Shown here: piece after piece, positions 55,099 through 61,645 of the stretch
How positions within the stretch are numbered: the stretch's first letter is position 1
Layout of the letters: each line of letters starts with the position of its first letter
NCBI RefSeq assembly: GCF_000172155.1
Contig: NZ_ABIZ01000001.1
Location: 1,922,001 to 1,986,000, forward strand
DNA: 64,000 nt
From: Verrucomicrobium spinosum DSM 4136 = JCM 18804
Lineage (GTDB): Bacteria; Verrucomicrobiota; Verrucomicrobiia; Verrucomicrobiales; Verrucomicrobiaceae
Reading direction: 5' to 3'
The notes under the pieces: model-generated
The model's input: only the letters and a program-made list of their open reading frames with translations
Told to the model about the DNA's origin: nothing
The model's database searches: none
Made by a program: the position numbers and the translations under genes

Positions 55099-55447
55099 CC
55101 CTCTTCCCCTCGTCCCTGGCGCAGGTTGGGTGCCGACATGGTTGCCAGTGGAAGTAATTTCCTTTTGCCCGTAGAATACCGTTCTGCGCCAGGTCTTGCC
55201 CTGCCCAAGGCGAGCCGTGCCGCCTCCAACCCCTTGACGCTGAGCTGATGGAGGATTGATTCCGTCTGAAAGCTCCGCGGTTGACCGGGGTGGCTGTTGT
55301 TTCCCATGATGGGAAAAAGGAACCGCCACCGCGAGGTGCCCGATTCAGTCATAGCAAGCTGTCTGCCCCGCGGAGGGCCTCCATGTAAGGAGTCGTTCGT
55401 CAGTGAAGGGGGGATGTCAGCTTCAATGAAACAACTCTATGAACGAC
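55099..55447. other. Intergenic region with a 17-bp palindrome, no gene seen
   Basis: No credible frame or RNA gene. It contains TTTCCCAT-g-ATGGGAAA (55300-55316), a perfect dyad that could be an operator for the downstream exported protein gene, and TAAGGAG at 55385-55391 well upstream of its start. Confidence 0.5.
55300..55316. promoter_or_regulatory. Perfect 17-bp palindrome, possible operator
   Basis: TTTCCCATGATGGGAAA reads the same on both strands around a central G. A loop of one base cannot form a stable RNA hairpin, so protein binding to DNA is more likely. Located about 130 bases before the start of the peptidoglycan-binding-domain protein gene. Confidence 0.35.
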
Positions 55448-56041
55448 ATGAAGACTTTGATGCCCACATGCATTGCGCTGGCGGCGTTCTCGTTTGCGGC
55501 AGTGTCCCAATCGGCCAGGGCCGAAGACAAGGTGATCGACAAAGGACGAAGGCTCGCGGAGAAGCTCCTGGACGCCACCTCAGAAAAGGATCGTGATCGT
55601 GATCGTGACCGCTCCCGCGACAAAGACAATGATCGTGACCGGGATCATCGCGACCGCGATAGGGATGGCTACTATTCCCGCCCAGCCAGTACGTTCGTGG
55701 TCACGCTCGGAAACGGCTATGCCGGCCGCGGCTACTACTACGGCCCGCCCAATGCAGGTTACTACTATGAGCGCTCGGGGGTGCGGTTTTACCGTGACCG
55801 GGATGCCGTGCCGCGCCAGTACTGGCGCAGTGAGTGGCGTGAGCCCGCGGCAAGTGAGAACTACAGCCGGACGGAAGCATCCGTCCAGCGGGCGCTGGCA
55901 CAGCGTGGGTACTATCGTGGACCCATCGACGGTGACATGGGCCCTGGCTCCCGTGCCGCTGTGGCCCGCTATCAGGCGGACAAGGGCATGAAACCCACAG
56001 GCGCAATCAATGACAGCTTGTTGAGGTCGCTGGGGCTGTAA
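55448..56041 (+). CDS. Exported peptidoglycan-binding-domain protein, Asp/Arg-rich (paralogue A)
   Basis: 197 residues from ATG 55448 (MKTLMPTCIALAAFSFAAVS, a signal peptide ending ARA). Then a DR-dipeptide region (about 50-75, DRDRDRDRSRDK) coded partly by GATCGT hexamers, a GYAGRGYYYGPPNAGYYYER block, and a C-terminal PG_binding_1 domain: TEASVQRALAQRGYYRGPID, GDMGPGSRAAVARYQADKGM, ending LLRSLGL. Binds peptidoglycan in the periplasm; no hydrolase domain is present. A closely related gene follows at 56280. ATG 55439 is an alternative start. Confidence 0.85.
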   Translation: MKTLMPTCIALAAFSFAAVSQSARAEDKVIDKGRRLAEKLLDATSEKDRDRDRDRSRDKDNDRDRDHRDRDRDGYYSRPASTFVVTLGNGYAGRGYYYGPPNAGYYYERSGVRFYRDRDAVPRQYWRSEWREPAASENYSRTEASVQRALAQRGYYRGPIDGDMGPGSRAAVARYQADKGMKPTGAINDSLLRSLGL

Positions 56042-56279: not shown

Positions 56280-56807
56280 ATGAAAACGCTGATTCCTGGT
56301 TCCCTATCTCTTCTGGTGTTTGCTTTGGCAATGGCCCTGCCCGCTTCTGTGGAAGCAAAGGATAAAGACAAGGAGCGCCGCAAAGCGGAAAAGTACTACC
56401 ACTCCAAGTACTCCCACAAGCACAACAAGTACCACCACGATGACCGGTATGTGTACCTGTCCCGCCCCCGGTCCTCCTTTGTGATCACCTTGGGCACCGG
56501 CTATGCCGGCCGCGGCTACTACTATGGACCGCCAAACGCCTCGTATTACTATGAGCGCAGTGGTGTGGCGTACTATCCCACGCGTGAGGCCGTTCCGAGA
56601 TCTTATTGGGGCAGTGGCAGTGCCTCTTACAGCCGCACGGAGGCCGAGGTGCAGCGTGCACTGGCGCGCCGCGGCTACTACCGCGGCCCCATTGACGGCG
56701 ACATCGGCCCGGGTTCGAGGAGTGCCATTGCCCGCTATCAGGCAGACCATGGCATGCGCCCCACCGGCAGCATTACCTCGGGCCTTTTGAGATCGCTGGG
56801 TCTCTGA
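56280..56807 (+). CDS. Exported peptidoglycan-binding-domain protein (paralogue B)
   Basis: 175 residues: signal peptide (LSLLVFALAMALPASVEA), a Lys/His/Tyr-rich basic segment (YYHSKYSHKHNKYHHDDRYV) where paralogue A has DR repeats, the shared block GYAGRGYYYGPPNASYYYER, and a PG_binding_1 domain TEAEVQRALARRGYYRGPID, GDIGPGSRSAIARYQADHGM, ending GLLRSLGL. The C-terminal 110 residues are nearly the same as in paralogue A, so this is a tandem duplication with divergence of the linker. Has its own upstream region after the intervening terminator. Confidence 0.85.
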   Translation: MKTLIPGSLSLLVFALAMALPASVEAKDKDKERRKAEKYYHSKYSHKHNKYHHDDRYVYLSRPRSSFVITLGTGYAGRGYYYGPPNASYYYERSGVAYYPTREAVPRSYWGSGSASYSRTEAEVQRALARRGYYRGPIDGDIGPGSRSAIARYQADHGMRPTGSITSGLLRSLGL

Positions 56808-56859: not shown

Positions 56860-57903
56860 TCACAACTCGGCCGCAGCCGCTTCCAGCAGGATCCGCTCCG
56901 TCTCCTCCCAACCAAGGCAGGGATCGGTGATGGACTGGCCGTAGCTGAGCTGGTCGAGCGACTCCTGCAGGGCCTGGGCTCCTTCGACCAAGTTGCTCTC
57001 CAGCATGGCGCCGATCACGCCCTCCGTACCGGAGCGTCGCTGTTGGACGATGTCATGGAAGACAGCCGACATGCGGCGGAAATCCTTAGAGCAGTTCGCA
57101 TGGCTCGCATCGATCATGACCACGGGGGGCAGGTGGTTTTTGTTGAGCAAAGCCAGGGTTTCGCGGACTGAACCCGCATCGTAGTTGGGCCCATTCTCCC
57201 CGCCACGCAGGATGACGTGGCAGTCGGGATTGCCTTCCGTGGCAACCACGCTGGCTCGGCCGCTTTCATCGATTCCCAGAAAAGTCTGAGGCTGGCGGGC
57301 TGTCTTGATGGCGTTGATCGCGGGCAGCACGCCGCCGCTGGTGGTGTTTTTAAAGCCAACCGGCATGGAGAGTCCGCTGGCCATCTGGCGATGGGTCTGT
57401 GATTCTGTGGTGCGGGCTCCAATGGCGCTCCAGCAAGTGAGGTCCGCGATGTACTGGGGGGTGATAGGGTCCAGCATCTCCGTGGCCGTGGGCAGGCCCA
57501 GATCGATGACTTCACGAAGGAAAGTGCGGGCGAGGCGCATCCCTTGGGGGATGTCATGGGTGCCGTCCAGATGAGGATCCATGATAAGCCCCTTCCAGCC
57601 GATGGTGGTGCGGGGTTTCTCGAAGTACACCCGCATTACCACCATGATGCGGTCTTTTACGCGATCAGCGAGCCCAGCCAGCTTCTGCGCGTACGCCTGG
57701 CCTGCCTTCAGGTCATGGATGCTGCACGGACCCACGATGACCAGAAAACGCTTGTCTGCCCCGGAGAGAATGCGGCTGATCTGCTGGCGGGATTTCGCCA
57801 CAAAATCGGCATGGGCATCGCTCCTCGGGATCTCTGTGCAGAGCTCCTGCGGAGAAGGGAGGGCAGTATTGGTGCGAACGTGAACGTTGGAGACCTGGAT
57901 CAT
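56860..57903 (-). CDS. 3-deoxy-7-phosphoheptulonate synthase (class I, AroG/F/H type)
   Basis: 347 residues, normal for class I-alpha DAHP synthases, which condense phosphoenolpyruvate and erythrose-4-phosphate at the start of the shikimate pathway. Visible signatures: LVIVGPCSIHDLKAGQAYAQ with the metal-binding cysteine, MRVYFEKPRTTIGWKGLIMD then PHLDGT, LPTATEMLDPITPQYIADLT, IGARTTESQTHRQMASGLSM then PVGFKN, and a catalytic VIMVDASH-like stretch here VVMIDASHANCSKD. Which aromatic amino acid inhibits it (aroF, G or H) cannot be decided by eye. Single gene; its upstream side faces the REP array. Confidence 0.96.
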   Translation of the reverse strand: MIQVSNVHVRTNTALPSPQELCTEIPRSDAHADFVAKSRQQISRILSGADKRFLVIVGPCSIHDLKAGQAYAQKLAGLADRVKDRIMVVMRVYFEKPRTTIGWKGLIMDPHLDGTHDIPQGMRLARTFLREVIDLGLPTATEMLDPITPQYIADLTCWSAIGARTTESQTHRQMASGLSMPVGFKNTTSGGVLPAINAIKTARQPQTFLGIDESGRASVVATEGNPDCHVILRGGENGPNYDAGSVRETLALLNKNHLPPVVMIDASHANCSKDFRRMSAVFHDIVQQRRSGTEGVIGAMLESNLVEGAQALQESLDQLSYGQSITDPCLGWEETERILLEAAAAEL

Positions 57904-58006
57904 GGCGGCCCTGCCAGCGTAGGGGTTGAGTGGTGAGATTCAAGTTCTCAGTTGGGGGGTGGGGGATGAGGCGCACCGTTCAGTGTCAAAGCGAGTCTGC
58001 CGCAGA
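57904..58006. other. Leader between DAHP synthase and REP array
   Basis: About 100 bases without coding potential; must hold the promoter of the DAHP synthase gene on the minus strand. No clear boxes seen. Confidence 0.4.
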
Positions 58007-58930
58007 GTAAAGGAGGCGGGGTCTCCGGCCCCGCGGTCTGTGGGAAGGGCGGAGCGGGAGGGGGATCAAGGGACGCTTGGCGCGTGAGCGGGGCTGGGAA
58101 CCCCCGCCTCCTTTACGCACGAACAAGCGACGAGGTGACCTGGCCGCAGGTAAAGGAGGCGGGGTCTCCGGCCCCGCGGTCTGATGGGTGGCCGGAGCGG
58201 GAAGGGGATCAAGGGACGATTGCAGCGTGAGCGGGGCTAGGAACCCCCGCCTCCTTTACGCACGAACAAGCATCGAGGTGACTTGGCCGCAGAGTAAAGG
58301 AGGCGGGGTCTCTGGCCCCGCGGTCTGTGGGATGGGCGGAGCGGGAAGGGGATCAAGGGACGATTGCAGCGTGAGCGGGGCTGGGAACCCCCGCCTCCTG
58401 TATTCAAGAACAAGCATCGAGGTGACTTGGCCGCGGAATAAAGGAGGCGGGGTCTCCGGCCCCGCGGTCTGTGGGGTGGCCGGAGCGGGAAGGGGATCAA
58501 GGGACGCTTGGCGCGTGAGCGGGGCTGGGAACCCCCGCCTCCTTTACGCACGAACAAGCGACGAGGTGACTTGGCCGCAGAGTAAAGGAGGCGGGGTCTC
58601 TGGCCCCGCGGTCTGTGGGATGGGCGGAGCGGGAAGGGGATCAAGGGACGATTGCAGCGTGAGCGGGGCTGGGAACCCCCGCCTCCTGTATTCAAGAACA
58701 AGCATCGAGGTGACTTGGCCGCGGAATAAAGGAGGCGGGGTCTCCGGCCCCGCGGTCTGTGGGGTGGCCGGAGCGGGAAGGGGATCAAGGGACGCTTGGC
58801 GCGTGAGCGGGGCGGGGTCTCTGGCCCCGCGGTCTGTGGGATGGGCGGAGCAGGAAGGGGATCAAGGGACGATTGGAGCGTGAGCGGGGCTGGGAACCCC
58901 CGCTTTCTTTACACGGGAACAAGTGATAGG
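58007..58930. repeat. REP/BIME tandem array, left of the RAYT gene
   Basis: Six full units and one fused unit with a 144-bp period: forward arms start at 58007, 58150, 58294, 58438, 58582 and 58726. Each unit has a forward arm GTAAAGGAGGCGGGG-TCTCCGG-CCCCGC, a spacer of about 50 bases, an inverted arm GAGCGGGGCTGGGAACCCCC plus GCCTCCTTTAC, and a linker GCACGAACAAGCGACGAGG plus TGACTTGGCCGCAGA. Arms can fold alone (GCGGGG/CCCCGC) or pair with each other. Units 3 and 5 are alike and 4 and 6 are alike, a 288-bp duplication. The seventh unit lost about 67 bp at its junction with unit 6. No protein is encoded. Confidence 0.93.
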
Positions 58931-58978
58931 TGATCCGGGGAGCCTGCCATCTTAACAGCTTGCGTTGACAGTGGCGTC

Positions 58979-59632
58979 ATGGAATTGCATATGGATAAAA
59001 TGTATCCTGCAATGCCGCCCGATTACCTCGATCCCAATCTCGAGATCGCCAAACATGGGAAAGTGCTCCCTCATTGGCAGCAAGGCGAAGCGTATGTGTT
59101 TGTCACCTGGAGGCTGGCAGATGCCATCCCGAAGGAGAAGATGCTGCCTCTTGCGGCGTATCGAAAGACTTGGCTTCAGTTGCACCCTGAACCTTGGGAC
59201 GCCAGGACTGAATGGGAGTATCACGAGACCTTCTCCAAGCAGATTGACGCATGGCTGGATGCCGGGAGCGGCAGTTGTGTGCTCCGTCGAACAGATGCGA
59301 GAGAGATCGTCGTGGGTGCATTGCAGCATTTTGAAGGTGAACGTTATCTCCTCGAAAGCTACGTGGTGATGCCCAACCATGTGCACGTGTTATTTCAGCC
59401 AAATGCCTCCCATGGGCTCGGCGATATTGTGCGTTCTTGGAAGCAGTACACTGCGTCGAAGATCAATGCGCTTCTAGGCAAATCTGGTTCGTTGTGGCAG
59501 GAGCGCTATTGGGATCGGTTGTTGAGAAATCCTGCGCATCATTGCAAGTGCCGTGAGTATGTTCGTGAGAACCCCGCGAAAGCGAAGCTGCGGGATGGGG
59601 AGTTTAGTTTTTGGGAGCGTGAGCGGGGCTAG
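58979..59632 (+). CDS. REP-associated tyrosine transposase (RAYT)
   Basis: 217-residue single-domain HUH nuclease of the TnpA_REP (Y1_Tnp, IS200-like) family that cuts single-stranded REP hairpins. EAYVFVTWRLADAIPKEKML is the N-terminal strand region; the HUH metal site is H134-V135-H136 in YVVMPNHVHVLFQ; DIVRSWKQYTASKINALLGK, LWQERYWDRLLRNP and REYVRENPAKAKL follow, the Tyr194 of the latter being the probable nucleophile by analogy with the Y-(I/V)-xx-NP motif. Start ATG 58979; ATG 58991 and 59000 are alternatives. The gene is full length with intact motifs. Its last five codons and stop lie within a REP arm. REP arrays flank it on both sides. Confidence 0.92.
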   Translation: MELHMDKMYPAMPPDYLDPNLEIAKHGKVLPHWQQGEAYVFVTWRLADAIPKEKMLPLAAYRKTWLQLHPEPWDARTEWEYHETFSKQIDAWLDAGSGSCVLRRTDAREIVVGALQHFEGERYLLESYVVMPNHVHVLFQPNASHGLGDIVRSWKQYTASKINALLGKSGSLWQERYWDRLLRNPAHHCKCREYVRENPAKAKLRDGEFSFWERERG

Positions 59633-60108
59633 GAACCCCCGCCTCCTTTACGCACGAACAAGCGACGAGGTGACTTGGCCGCAGAGTAAAGGAGGCGGGG
59701 TCTCCGGCCCCGCGGTCTGTGGGGTGGCCGGAGATGGGAGGGGATCGTGGGACGATTGGAGCGTGAGCGGGGCTGGGAACCCCCGCCTCCTTTACGCACG
59801 AACAAGCGACGAGGTGACATGGCCGCAGAGTAAAGGAGGCGGGGTCTCCGGCCCCGCGGTCTGTGGGGTGGCCGGAGCGGGAAGGGGATCAAGGGGCGCT
59901 TGGCGCGTGAGCGGGGCTGGGAATCCCCGCCTCCTTTACGCACGAACAAGCGACGAGGTGACTTGGCCGCAGAGTAAAGGAGGCGGGGGCTCCGGCCCCG
60001 CGGTCTGTGGGATGGGCGGAGCAGGAAGGGGATCAAGGGACGTTTGGTGCGTGAGCGGGGCTGGGAACCCCCGCCTCCTTTACGCACGAACAAGCGACGA
60101 GGTCAGAA
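59614..60108. repeat. REP/BIME tandem array, right of the RAYT gene
   Basis: An inverted arm (59621-59651, overlapping the RAYT 3' end) followed by three units with forward arms at 59686, 59830 and 59974, the same 144-bp period as the left array. The last inverted arm ends near 60092 and repeat homology stops near 60104 at GACGAGG. It separates the convergent 3' ends of the RAYT and sulfatase genes. Confidence 0.93.
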
Positions 60109-60139
60109 GGCTGGAGTGATGACCGCACTCCCACTCCCC

Positions 60140-61645
60140 TCACGCTCCGGGCTTTGTCTTCGCCTCTGGATGCCGCCCCAAAATCTTCCGCAACTCTGCC
60201 ACCACCTCGACCTTCTCCTTCGCCAAATTCCGCGACTCGGCAGGATCGGCCTGATAGTCATACAACTCAAGATCCGCCGTATTGGCCGCCTCACCGGGGA
60301 CTTTCCACTCCACGAGCCGGTAGCGCTCCGTCCGGATGGAGCGGCCAATTACCTGCTTCCCGTCGCGCTGGCGGGGAAAGGCATGATAGGCGTGATCCCG
60401 AACGCGCTTCTCTGGATCCTTCAGCACCGGCACCAGACTTACGCCATCCATCGGTTGAGGAGCGTTTGGTTGATCCAGTCCTGCCAATTCCACCAGCGTA
60501 GGGTAGATATCCACCGTCTCCGCGAGTTGTTGCGTGTGGGTGCCGGGTTGAGTCACGCCTGGAGCGACCACCAGCAGCGGGATGTGATTGGCCTGCTCGT
60601 AGTTGGTGTGCTTGGTCCACATGCCGTGGTCGCCCAGGTGCCAGCCGTGGTCTCCCCAGAGGATGATGATGGTGTTGTCTGCCATCTTCAGGCGGTCCAG
60701 CTCCTCAACCACGCGTCCAATTTGAGCATCCGCATAGCTCATGCTGGCATAATAGCCATGCAGGATCTGGCGACGGATCTCCTCGCTGAGCGGCGGGCGT
60801 TGGGGAATGGGTTCGTAGTTGTTGAGCTCCCCCAAGGTTTTTCCCGCGTAGCCTGGAGCACCCTCTGGGGCGCTGCGCAGGGTGGGCAGGACGAACCTGG
60901 AGCGGTCGTAGAGCTCCCAGTACTTCCTGGGGGCGGTGAAGGGCAGGTGCGGCTTCACAAAACCGAGTGCGAGGAAAAACGGAGTCTCTGGCCGCTGGCG
61001 GGAGTCCTGGAGCCGTTTCACGCCCTCGTCGGCTATCCTGCCATCGGCATAGGCGTTGTCGGGCAAGTCCAGGGCCTCCCAGGCCGGGCCGCGGGGAAGG
61101 GTGCCGATCCTGCCCAGATGCTGGTTGGTGAAGTAGGCCTCTTCGCGAGTGAGTTGGCCGGCGGTAGGGCTGCTCGTGTCCCGGTATTCCACCACGCTTT
61201 CCGGCTGGAAGGGCACACTCCAGGATCCGGGATCATCGTGATTGCCGTGACCCTTGTGGAGGATCTTGCCCACACCCTCTGCCCGCCAGCCGTGGTTCAT
61301 GAAATACTGCGTGAGCGTGACCGCATTGGGCACGGCCTCGCGGAAGTTCTCCCTCAGGCCGTAGATGCCCAGAGAGGTGGAGCGGGAGCCCAGCATGAGG
61401 TTGTTGCGCGAGGGGGCGCACACAGCCTGGTTGCAGTAAGCCAGATCAAACCTCATGCCGCGGGAGGCGAGCCGGTCCAGGTTTGGCGTCTTGGCCAGGG
61501 TGTCCCCATAGCAGCCCAGCACGGGCTTGAGGTCGTCCACACAAAGGAGCAGGACATTGGGGCGGGATCCGGAGGAGGGCGGAGCCCCGTGACCGGAGGC
61601 CAGGATTGTCAGGAGGGAAAGACTGGTCAGCAGAAAGAAACGCAT
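60140..61645 (-). CDS. Secreted sulfatase (iduronate-2-sulfatase-like)
   Basis: 501 residues from ATG 61645 with a signal peptide (FFLLTSLSLLTILASGHGAP). Sulfatase (alkaline phosphatase superfamily) motifs: NVLLLCVDDLKPVLGCYGD with the metal-binding Asp pair, the formylglycine site CAPSR in QAVCAPSRNNLMLGSRST, GVGKILHKGH, FLALGFVKPHLPFTAP, and IIILWGDHGWHLGDHGMWTK with the second metal site. Cys in CxPSR would be converted to formylglycine by an FGE/anSME not seen here. Sulfatases are abundant in PVC bacteria and free sulfate from algal or host polysaccharides. A longer N-terminal frame exists but only this start gives a signal peptide. Confidence 0.93.
   Translation of the reverse strand: MRFFLLTSLSLLTILASGHGAPPSSGSRPNVLLLCVDDLKPVLGCYGDTLAKTPNLDRLASRGMRFDLAYCNQAVCAPSRNNLMLGSRSTSLGIYGLRENFREAVPNAVTLTQYFMNHGWRAEGVGKILHKGHGNHDDPGSWSVPFQPESVVEYRDTSSPTAGQLTREEAYFTNQHLGRIGTLPRGPAWEALDLPDNAYADGRIADEGVKRLQDSRQRPETPFFLALGFVKPHLPFTAPRKYWELYDRSRFVLPTLRSAPEGAPGYAGKTLGELNNYEPIPQRPPLSEEIRRQILHGYYASMSYADAQIGRVVEELDRLKMADNTIIILWGDHGWHLGDHGMWTKHTNYEQANHIPLLVVAPGVTQPGTHTQQLAETVDIYPTLVELAGLDQPNAPQPMDGVSLVPVLKDPEKRVRDHAYHAFPRQRDGKQVIGRSIRTERYRLVEWKVPGEAANTADLELYDYQADPAESRNLAKEKVEVVAELRKILGRHPEAKTKPGA

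What the first reader, a model, noticed from the sequence alone, without database searches (positions are those of the whole stretch)
58007..60108. RAYT transposase nested in a strict 144-bp-period REP/BIME array
Nine full forward/inverted palindrome units sit at exact 143-144 bp steps on both sides of one RAYT gene. Established: RAYTs (TnpA_REP) bind and cleave REP hairpins, usually scattered singly or in small BIMEs. A dense head-to-tail array of two-armed units around the gene looks like an active source locus or a failed dispersal, in which the units amplify in tandem. The arm foot here is GTAA, not the GTAG of gammaproteobacterial REPs, so this may be a RAYT/REP subgroup with its own recognition sequence.
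Basis: partly seen in the sequence, partly recalled or inferred. Interest (0 to 1): 0.8.

Follow-up and report, generated by a model that had tools for sequence, protein, structure and literature searches.

The report
RAYT transposase inside a REP-hairpin array
A single-copy bacterial transposase gene sits inside a tandem array of the DNA hairpins it probably cuts; similar hairpins are scattered over the chromosome, carry an unusual recognition tag shared by related transposases, and mostly point the same way relative to DNA replication.

Summary
The array is real. Window 58007-60108 holds nine complete GGAG hairpin arms (A, + strand), a tenth without its foot, and nine intact inverted partners (B), alternating with a period of 143-144 bp on both sides of an intact 217-aa RAYT (58979-59632). 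It is a REPtron with a BIME-type array, a known kind. It is not a unique source locus: 123 such palindromes were counted in the genome, and eight other loci carry at least one complete unit of the same array without a nearby RAYT, one with more arms (12). Of 46 related RAYTs examined, 31 have GGAG-footed hairpins, 10 GTAG/GTGG, 5 undetermined; the split follows the RAYT tree and goes with two residues at the guide-contact site. I met no GGAG foot in the passages read. Second result: A arms point one way in each replichore (29 of 36 loci; 16 of 18 multi-arm loci), not explained by gene direction, placing the A strand on the lagging-strand template, as a Y1 single-strand transposase would predict. 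This was noticed post hoc; support in two draft relatives is weak (25 of 38). Similarly oriented tandem REP arrays were reported in Pseudomonas fluorescens SBW25.

The parts
58979..59632 (+). RAYT (TnpA_REP-like Y1/HUH transposase), 217 aa; HUH = H134-V-H136, Y194, N198, guide-contact segment W173-R183
   Evidence: Pfam Y1_Tnp 32.2 bits over its cut-off of 23; NCBIfam REP_Tyr_transpos 66.8 bits, below its cut-off of 80; E. coli TnpA_REP 4er8 at E=1.4e-4; residues checked
58007..58830 (+). left half of the array: six complete A arms and one A arm without foot, five intact B arms
58831..58945 (.). decayed end of the array upstream of the gene, including a degenerate B arm near 58890
   Evidence: read by eye
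59616..60108 (+). right half of the array: four B arms and three A arms; the first B arm overlaps the 3' end and stop codon of the RAYT gene
58012..58034 (+). one A arm: foot GGAG + stem GCGGGGTC / loop TCC / GGCCCCGC
   Evidence: folds as ssDNA at -8.5 kcal/mol, z -2.97; pair 12-16 covaries
58088..58111 (-). one B arm: foot GGAG + weaker stem-loop GCGGGGGTTCCCAGCCCCGC
   Evidence: -6.4 kcal/mol, z -1.08
58274..58525 (+). 252-bp stretch repeated exactly at 58562-58813 (offset 288 = two units): recent two-unit duplication

Best explanation
This is a REPtron: a single-copy, catalytically intact RAYT lying inside an array of its cognate REP hairpins, which belong to a chromosome-wide family of inverted REP pairs (REPIN/BIME). 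Proposed mechanism: the RAYT binds the GGAG foot plus hairpin of the A arm as single-stranded DNA on the lagging-strand template, cuts with Y194 beside the hairpin and moves REP pairs; neighbouring units are then duplicated head to tail (slippage or unequal recombination between identical units, possibly started at RAYT nicks), giving 143-144 bp arrays here and arrays of other periods elsewhere. Shown: anatomy, genome-wide family, hairpin covariation at one pair, conserved RAYT-repeat association in relatives, foot-clade match, orientation bias in this genome. Inferred: binding, cleavage, lagging-strand choice, the amplification route and any current activity.
For: Family and array: 123 palindromes against 2 in the control; 138 blastn matches of one unit; 48 repeat clusters, each intergenic or overlapping a gene end by under 60 bp, apart from the window where the RAYT itself lies inside; 20 of 48 lie between convergent genes against 30 of 221 background gaps, p=4.5e-5. 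Cognate pairing: the 63 percent RAYT of G003 and the 53 percent RAYT of G007 are flanked by GGAGGCGGG(A/G)...(T/C)CCCGC hairpins, while the other home RAYTs whose feet could be read (6166k, 2185k, 590k) have GTAG hairpins. Hairpin: stem pair 12-16 is paired in 17 of 18 distinct arms against a shuffled mean of 12.6, 0 of 2000 shuffles as high; the A arm and the A-B unit fold better than shuffles. Catalysis: HUH, Y194, N198 present. Lagging-strand choice: 29 of 36 loci have A arms in the sense of the leading strand, i.e. on the lagging-strand template; Fisher p=9e-4, multi-arm loci 16 of 18, p=0.0023. Duplication: 252-bp exact repeat at offset 288; units 0.902 identical within arrays against 0.843 between.
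Against: Orientation bias: found after looking at the same data; single-arm loci alone give 13 of 18, p=0.27, and convergent-flank loci alone p=0.10; relatives give G003 17 of 23 (p=0.035), G001 8 of 15 (p=1), together 25 of 38 (p=0.07), with a skew proxy that was right in 43 of 48 home regions; a second home family gives 9 of 12, p=0.24; a G004 family shows no evident flip by eye, its origin not determined. Stem pair 11-17 shows no covariation (13 of 18, shuffled mean 13.0) and pair 10-18 only a trend (15 of 18, 105 of 2000 shuffles as high). The B arm folds no better than shuffles (z -1.08). The REP_Tyr_transpos cut-off is not reached. No movement has been seen; no strain comparison was possible.
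Confidence: 0.8

Rival explanations
1. The arrays are functional, replication-polar chromosome elements (for example DNA-translocase guides, gyrase or fork-related sites, or terminators between convergent genes) kept by selection; the RAYT matters only for their origin.
For: Multi-arm loci are the polar ones, 16 of 18 against 13 of 18 for single arms. The unit is G-rich on the leading strand (skew 0.22-0.26) in this family, and the second family's 2185k array is G-rich on the same strand though its RAYT lies on the other (0.15-0.23). G-rich octamers found in the unit are leading-biased elsewhere in the genome too (e.g. GGGGTGGG 73:15, GGGAAGGG 37:13). Convergent-gene enrichment. SBW25 arrays are likewise mirrored.
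Against: Generic G-rich octamers are leading-biased throughout the sampled DNA, so the unit's content is nothing special. G001 shows no bias (8 of 15). No binding data.
Confidence: 0.3
2. The RAYT locus is the active source from which units are amplified in tandem and exported.
For: RAYT within a long array (10 A arms) with a recent exact two-unit duplication.
Against: Eight other loci carry complete units without a nearby RAYT, one with more A arms. Arrays with quite different periods (264, 206, 340, 316, 297, 307, 350) also occur, so amplification happens at other loci too.
Confidence: 0.12
3. An ordinary satellite-like tandem repeat grown by recombination, with an unrelated Y1 gene that happens to lie in it.
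For: Higher-order repeats and local homogenisation as in satellites; repeats present in G001 without a close RAYT.
Against: The same RAYT clade is flanked by the same hairpin type in G003 and G007; foot type follows the RAYT tree; inverted pairs and single arms occur at scattered loci.
Confidence: 0.06

Closest known systems
REPtron / TnpA_REP (RAYT) of Escherichia coli MG1655
   Same: HUH + single Tyr + Asn four residues on; gene flanked by alternating inverted REPs; single copy; hairpin with a tetranucleotide at its 5' foot
   Different: Foot GGAG instead of GTAG; at the guide contact D179 R180 in place of E100 H101; short 8-bp stem with 3-nt loop rather than a long bulged stem
REPIN clusters and tandem GI-GIII arrays of Pseudomonas fluorescens SBW25 (PMC3116915)
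   Same: Ordered tandem arrays of two alternating REP types with fixed spacings; a REPIN cluster beside each RAYT; arrays forward on one side of the chromosome and reverse on the other
   Different: Different phylum, sequence and spacing (77+67 bp here against 112+72 there)
BIME-2 / atypical BIMEs of enterobacteria
   Same: Tandem copies of inverted REP pairs (passage)
   Different: GGAG foot; arrays of up to 12 A arms; longer unit
GTAG REP families, including those of the verrucomicrobium Opitutus terrae (PMC3733652)
   Same: Phylum; short stem-loops with a terminal tetranucleotide; head-head and tail-tail pairs
   Different: Feet described there in the passages read are GTAG with changes GYAG, GYRG, GTRG, GTMG, GTGG; G in second position is not among them

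Membership tests
RAYT / TnpA_REP | HUH motif, one catalytic Tyr, Asn four residues downstream | tested here: met
   H134-V-H136, Y194, N198; Y1_Tnp over its Pfam cut-off
RAYT / TnpA_REP | Curated NCBIfam model REP_Tyr_transpos at its cut-off | tested here: inconclusive
   Best family hit, but 66.8 bits against a cut-off of 80
RAYT / TnpA_REP | Flanked by REPs that are also scattered in the genome | tested here: met
RAYT / TnpA_REP | Single full-length copy per REP family, not self-mobilised | tested here: met
   next best homologue in the genome 43 percent identical
RAYT / TnpA_REP | Canonical GT[AG]G foot recognised as guide | tested here: not met
   foot is GGAG; non-canonical feet are also reported for other subclasses (2.6 and class 3), so this marks a variant, not an exclusion
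RAYT / TnpA_REP | Cleavage of single-stranded REP by the protein | not testable with these tools
   needs purified protein
REP / REPIN / BIME | Short palindrome able to form a stem-loop | tested here: met
   (A arm; the B arm weakly)
REP / REPIN / BIME | High copy number, extragenic | tested here: met
   123 matches; 48 clusters outside genes or overlapping a gene end by under 60 bp (genes called by my own script)
REP / REPIN / BIME | Two REPs in inverted orientation as the unit | tested here: met
   A and B alternate on opposite strands
REP / REPIN / BIME | Mobility within the genome | not tested
   no second strain or empty-site comparison was made

The most novel reading that the evidence does not exclude
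A large clade of verrucomicrobial RAYTs reads a new guide tetranucleotide, GGAG, through a changed contact helix (Tyr and Arg at the positions of E. coli 98 and 101), and acts in vivo on one strand only, the lagging-strand template, so that its REP pairs and the satellite-like arrays grown from them are laid down with fixed polarity in each replichore. The SBW25 arrays would then be the same phenomenon in another phylum, and REP orientation a genome-scale footprint of single-strand transposition.
Probability: 0.35. Interest if true: 0.7.

Novelty: new variant of a known kind. Interest (0 to 1): 0.5.

Why it matters
How REPs spread is unsettled: the enzyme cuts single-stranded REPs in vitro, but movement in cells is inferred. 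A replication-polar distribution would be evidence in genomes for strand-specific action, testable in any genome whose two arms can be told apart. The GGAG foot, with matching residues in the RAYT, offers a natural experiment on how guide tetranucleotide and enzyme change together, and could allow RAYT cleavage specificity to be predicted from sequence.

Tried and rejected
GTAA as foot: rejected, it varies while GGAG is constant and abuts the stem. RAYT locus as sole source: rejected. Gene direction as cause of the orientation bias: not supported, A arms are co-directional with same-strand flanking genes at 7 of 14 loci. Bias from a KOPS-like octamer: not resolved; such octamers are leading-biased generally. 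Known RNA family: none in 57800-60300 at E up to 0.1. dnaA as origin marker: it lies at 5.086 Mb, far from the skew origin near 0, so origin and terminus rest on GC skew alone, which is noisy between 4.02 and 4.16 Mb. Residue-foot covariation beyond the tree: only 2 independent pairs, so no test can reach significance. A G004 family with two loop lengths (54 and 54 matches) showed no evident flip by eye; another G004 family (24 matches) is mostly symmetrical pairs. Structure prediction and fold search were not run. The RAYT sample for the tree was 46 of the roughly 160 matches listed, chosen mainly from the nearest, so it is tilted to close relatives; the 5 undetermined feet were left out of the foot-only count of changes. 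Feet were assigned by eye from script output. My first hand count of A arms (9:1 and 3:18) used the loci as typed by eye; the scripted count replaces it.

Full report
What is there. The window is G000:C1:1922001-1986000 of an 8.22-Mb single-contig genome. The array of the finding is confirmed: A arms on the + strand at steps of 143-144 bp, B arms on the - strand between them (A to B 77, B to A 66-67), nine complete A arms, a tenth without foot, nine intact B arms, and an intact RAYT ORF at 58979-59632 whose stop codon lies in a B arm.

The gene. Pfam Y1_Tnp is matched over its cut-off, NCBIfam REP_Tyr_transpos below its cut-off, and E. coli TnpA_REP (4er8) at E=1.4e-4. HUH, Tyr194 and Asn198 are present. 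It is single-copy: the next home homologue is 43 percent identical. Thirty-four of 38 genomes searched hold a homologue at E up to 0.001.

The repeats genome-wide. The arm pattern has 123 matches at up to 2 mismatches, the reversed control 2; one unit has 138 blastn matches. In the stretches I fetched, 48 repeat clusters lie between genes or overlap a gene end by under 60 bp; in the window the RAYT itself lies inside the cluster (genes called by a simple hexamer script of mine). Twenty of 48 are between convergent genes against 30 of 221 other gaps, p=4.5e-5. Complete 130-160 bp units occur at nine loci, the window included (44 units; 0.902 identity within, 0.843 between arrays). No Y1 match lies within 20 kb of the other eight. 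Other loci repeat the conserved inverted pair at quite different periods: 264 at 11 kb, 206 at 2.090 Mb, 340 at 4.171, 316 at 4.179, 297 at 4.691, 307 at 7.043, 350 at 8.072 Mb, as if a pair together with whatever DNA lay beside it had been multiplied. The window locus is thus one array among several; the one at 3.627 Mb has 12 A arms against 10. In the window a 252-bp run recurs exactly at offset 288, a recent two-unit duplication.

The hairpin. In 155 arms of 18 distinct sequences from the fetched stretches, pair 12-16 is kept in 17 of 18 (shuffled mean 12.6; 0 of 2000 as high); pair 10-18 shows a trend (15; 105 of 2000), with G-C replaced by A-T in a subfamily; pair 11-17 shows none (13; mean 13.0). 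As single-stranded DNA the A arm folds at -8.5 kcal/mol (z -2.97), the B arm at -6.4 (z -1.08), the A-to-B unit at -34 (z -4.62). No Rfam family matches at E up to 0.1.

The foot. The four bases touching the stem are GGAG. I read the flanks of 46 RAYTs: 31 GGAG, 10 GTAG or GTGG, 5 undetermined, assigned by eye. On a tree made without the guide-contact columns the two feet need 2 changes among the 41 determined rows; with the undetermined rows as a class of their own the GGAG group needs 6 (shuffled mean 12.8, 0 of 500 as low). Twenty-seven GGAG rows and two undetermined ones form one group without any GTAG/GTGG row (support 84/91, drawn open). At the positions of E. coli residues 98 and 101, GGAG rows read Y,R in 27 of 31, S,T in 3, Y,T in 1; the others S,H in 6 of 10, S,R in 3, G,H in 1. 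E. coli itself reads F,H. One starred sister pair switches foot and both residues together (G004k40 and HOME590k), but only two independent pairs exist, so this is a pattern, not a test. In the literature passages I read, feet are GT[AG]G, with degenerate second and third positions listed as GYAG, GYRG, GTRG, GTMG, and non-consensus feet in subclass 2.6 and class 3. The word GGAG does not occur at a word start in the four papers in which I looked for it, and a search for GGAG with RAYT and REP found 64 papers, of which the 10 listed are unrelated by title. The other five papers' worth of possible sources, among them the 2012 structure paper (not held) and the 2017 classification of RAYTs, I did not read.

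The orientation. GC skew is mostly positive from about 20 kb to 3.98 Mb and mostly negative from about 4.1 to 8.13 Mb, noisy between 4.02 and 4.16 Mb, so origin and terminus are taken near 0 and 4.1 Mb; dnaA is elsewhere. Each of 36 loci with A-type loops (including the A-T subfamily) holds A arms of one orientation only: 10 + and 3 - below 4.1 Mb, 4 + and 19 - above, Fisher p=9e-4; 29 of 36 follow one rule, p=3e-4. Loci with two or more A arms: 16 of 18 (p=0.0023); single arms: 13 of 18 (p=0.27); convergent flanks only p=0.10, other flanks p=0.0055; co-directional with same-strand neighbours 7 of 14, so gene direction does not explain it. For a fork moving away from the origin this puts the A strand on the lagging-strand template, where IS608-type Y1 transposases act (passage). 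The bias was noticed in these data, so the p values are descriptive. The loci came from listed hits: one search lists the first 100 of its 123 matches, and one search scored 40 of 94 first-look candidates. In relatives, local GC skew as a proxy (right in 43 of 48 home regions) gives 17 of 23 in G003, 8 of 15 in G001, together 25 of 38, p=0.07. The second home family (GTAG, RAYT at 2.186 Mb, itself in a 96-97 bp array) gives 9 of 12 under the rule that the G-rich strand is leading, p=0.24. A G004 family shows no evident flip. Bertels and Rainey (PMC3116915, section 12 and passages read) report five SBW25 tandem arrays forward near 2 Mbp and six reverse near 4 Mbp. They also report a REPIN cluster beside each of three RAYTs, so an array beside a RAYT is not new.

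How it most likely works. The RAYT recognises GGAG plus hairpin in single-stranded DNA and cuts beside it; pairs move; arrays then grow head to tail by duplication between identical units. The cut site is not known; by the published guide model for GTAG, in which A3 and G4 choose CT (passage), GGAG would leave CT as the site and change only position 2. Selection for polar arrays is the chief rival for the orientation result, and both could be true.

Verdict. The object is a RAYT/REP system with a BIME-type array, ordinary in kind. What is unusual is the GGAG foot shared by a RAYT clade and the replichore-polar orientation; the first is well supported as a sequence pattern, the second is clear in one genome and weakly supported elsewhere.

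Noticed in passing
G000 2185038-2186672 (L138): A second RAYT lies inside its own tandem array, period 96-97 bp, with GTAG arms of two kinds (AAGAACC and AAGAGCC); further copies at 3.1865 Mb and elsewhere.
   Followed up: partly
G000 11.3k, 2.090M, 4.171M, 4.179M, 4.691M, 7.043M, 8.072M (L096, L104, L110, L116, L131, L134): Tandem arrays in which the hairpin repeats with local DNA at periods of 264, 206, 340, 316, 297, 307 and 350 bp.
   Followed up: partly
G000 4.775M, 4.780M, 4.887M (L119, L121): Mosaic loci mixing GGAG and GTAG hairpins of two RAYT families.
   Followed up: no
G000, e.g. 176895-177389, 4066157-4066651, 7448759-7449253: Several ORFs of about 355-361 aa match Y1_Tnp in two pieces (5-61 and 63-119) with a gap of roughly 165 bp between them: a multi-copy Y1 family with an insertion in the domain.
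   Followed up: no
window 55439-56041 and 56280-56807: Two neighbouring ORFs (200 and 175 aa) share a GYAGRGYYYGPPNA segment and a C-terminal VQRALAxRGYYRGPIDGD segment, apparently tandem paralogues.
   Followed up: no
G001 contigs C84, C118, C131, C133, C134; G003 contig C59: Several REP hits lie within about 220 bp of contig ends, as if draft assemblies break at the arrays, so unit numbers in drafts are unreliable.
   Followed up: no
G000 5085813-5086295: The only dnaA match lies about 1 Mb from the skew minimum or maximum, not at the presumed origin.
   Followed up: no
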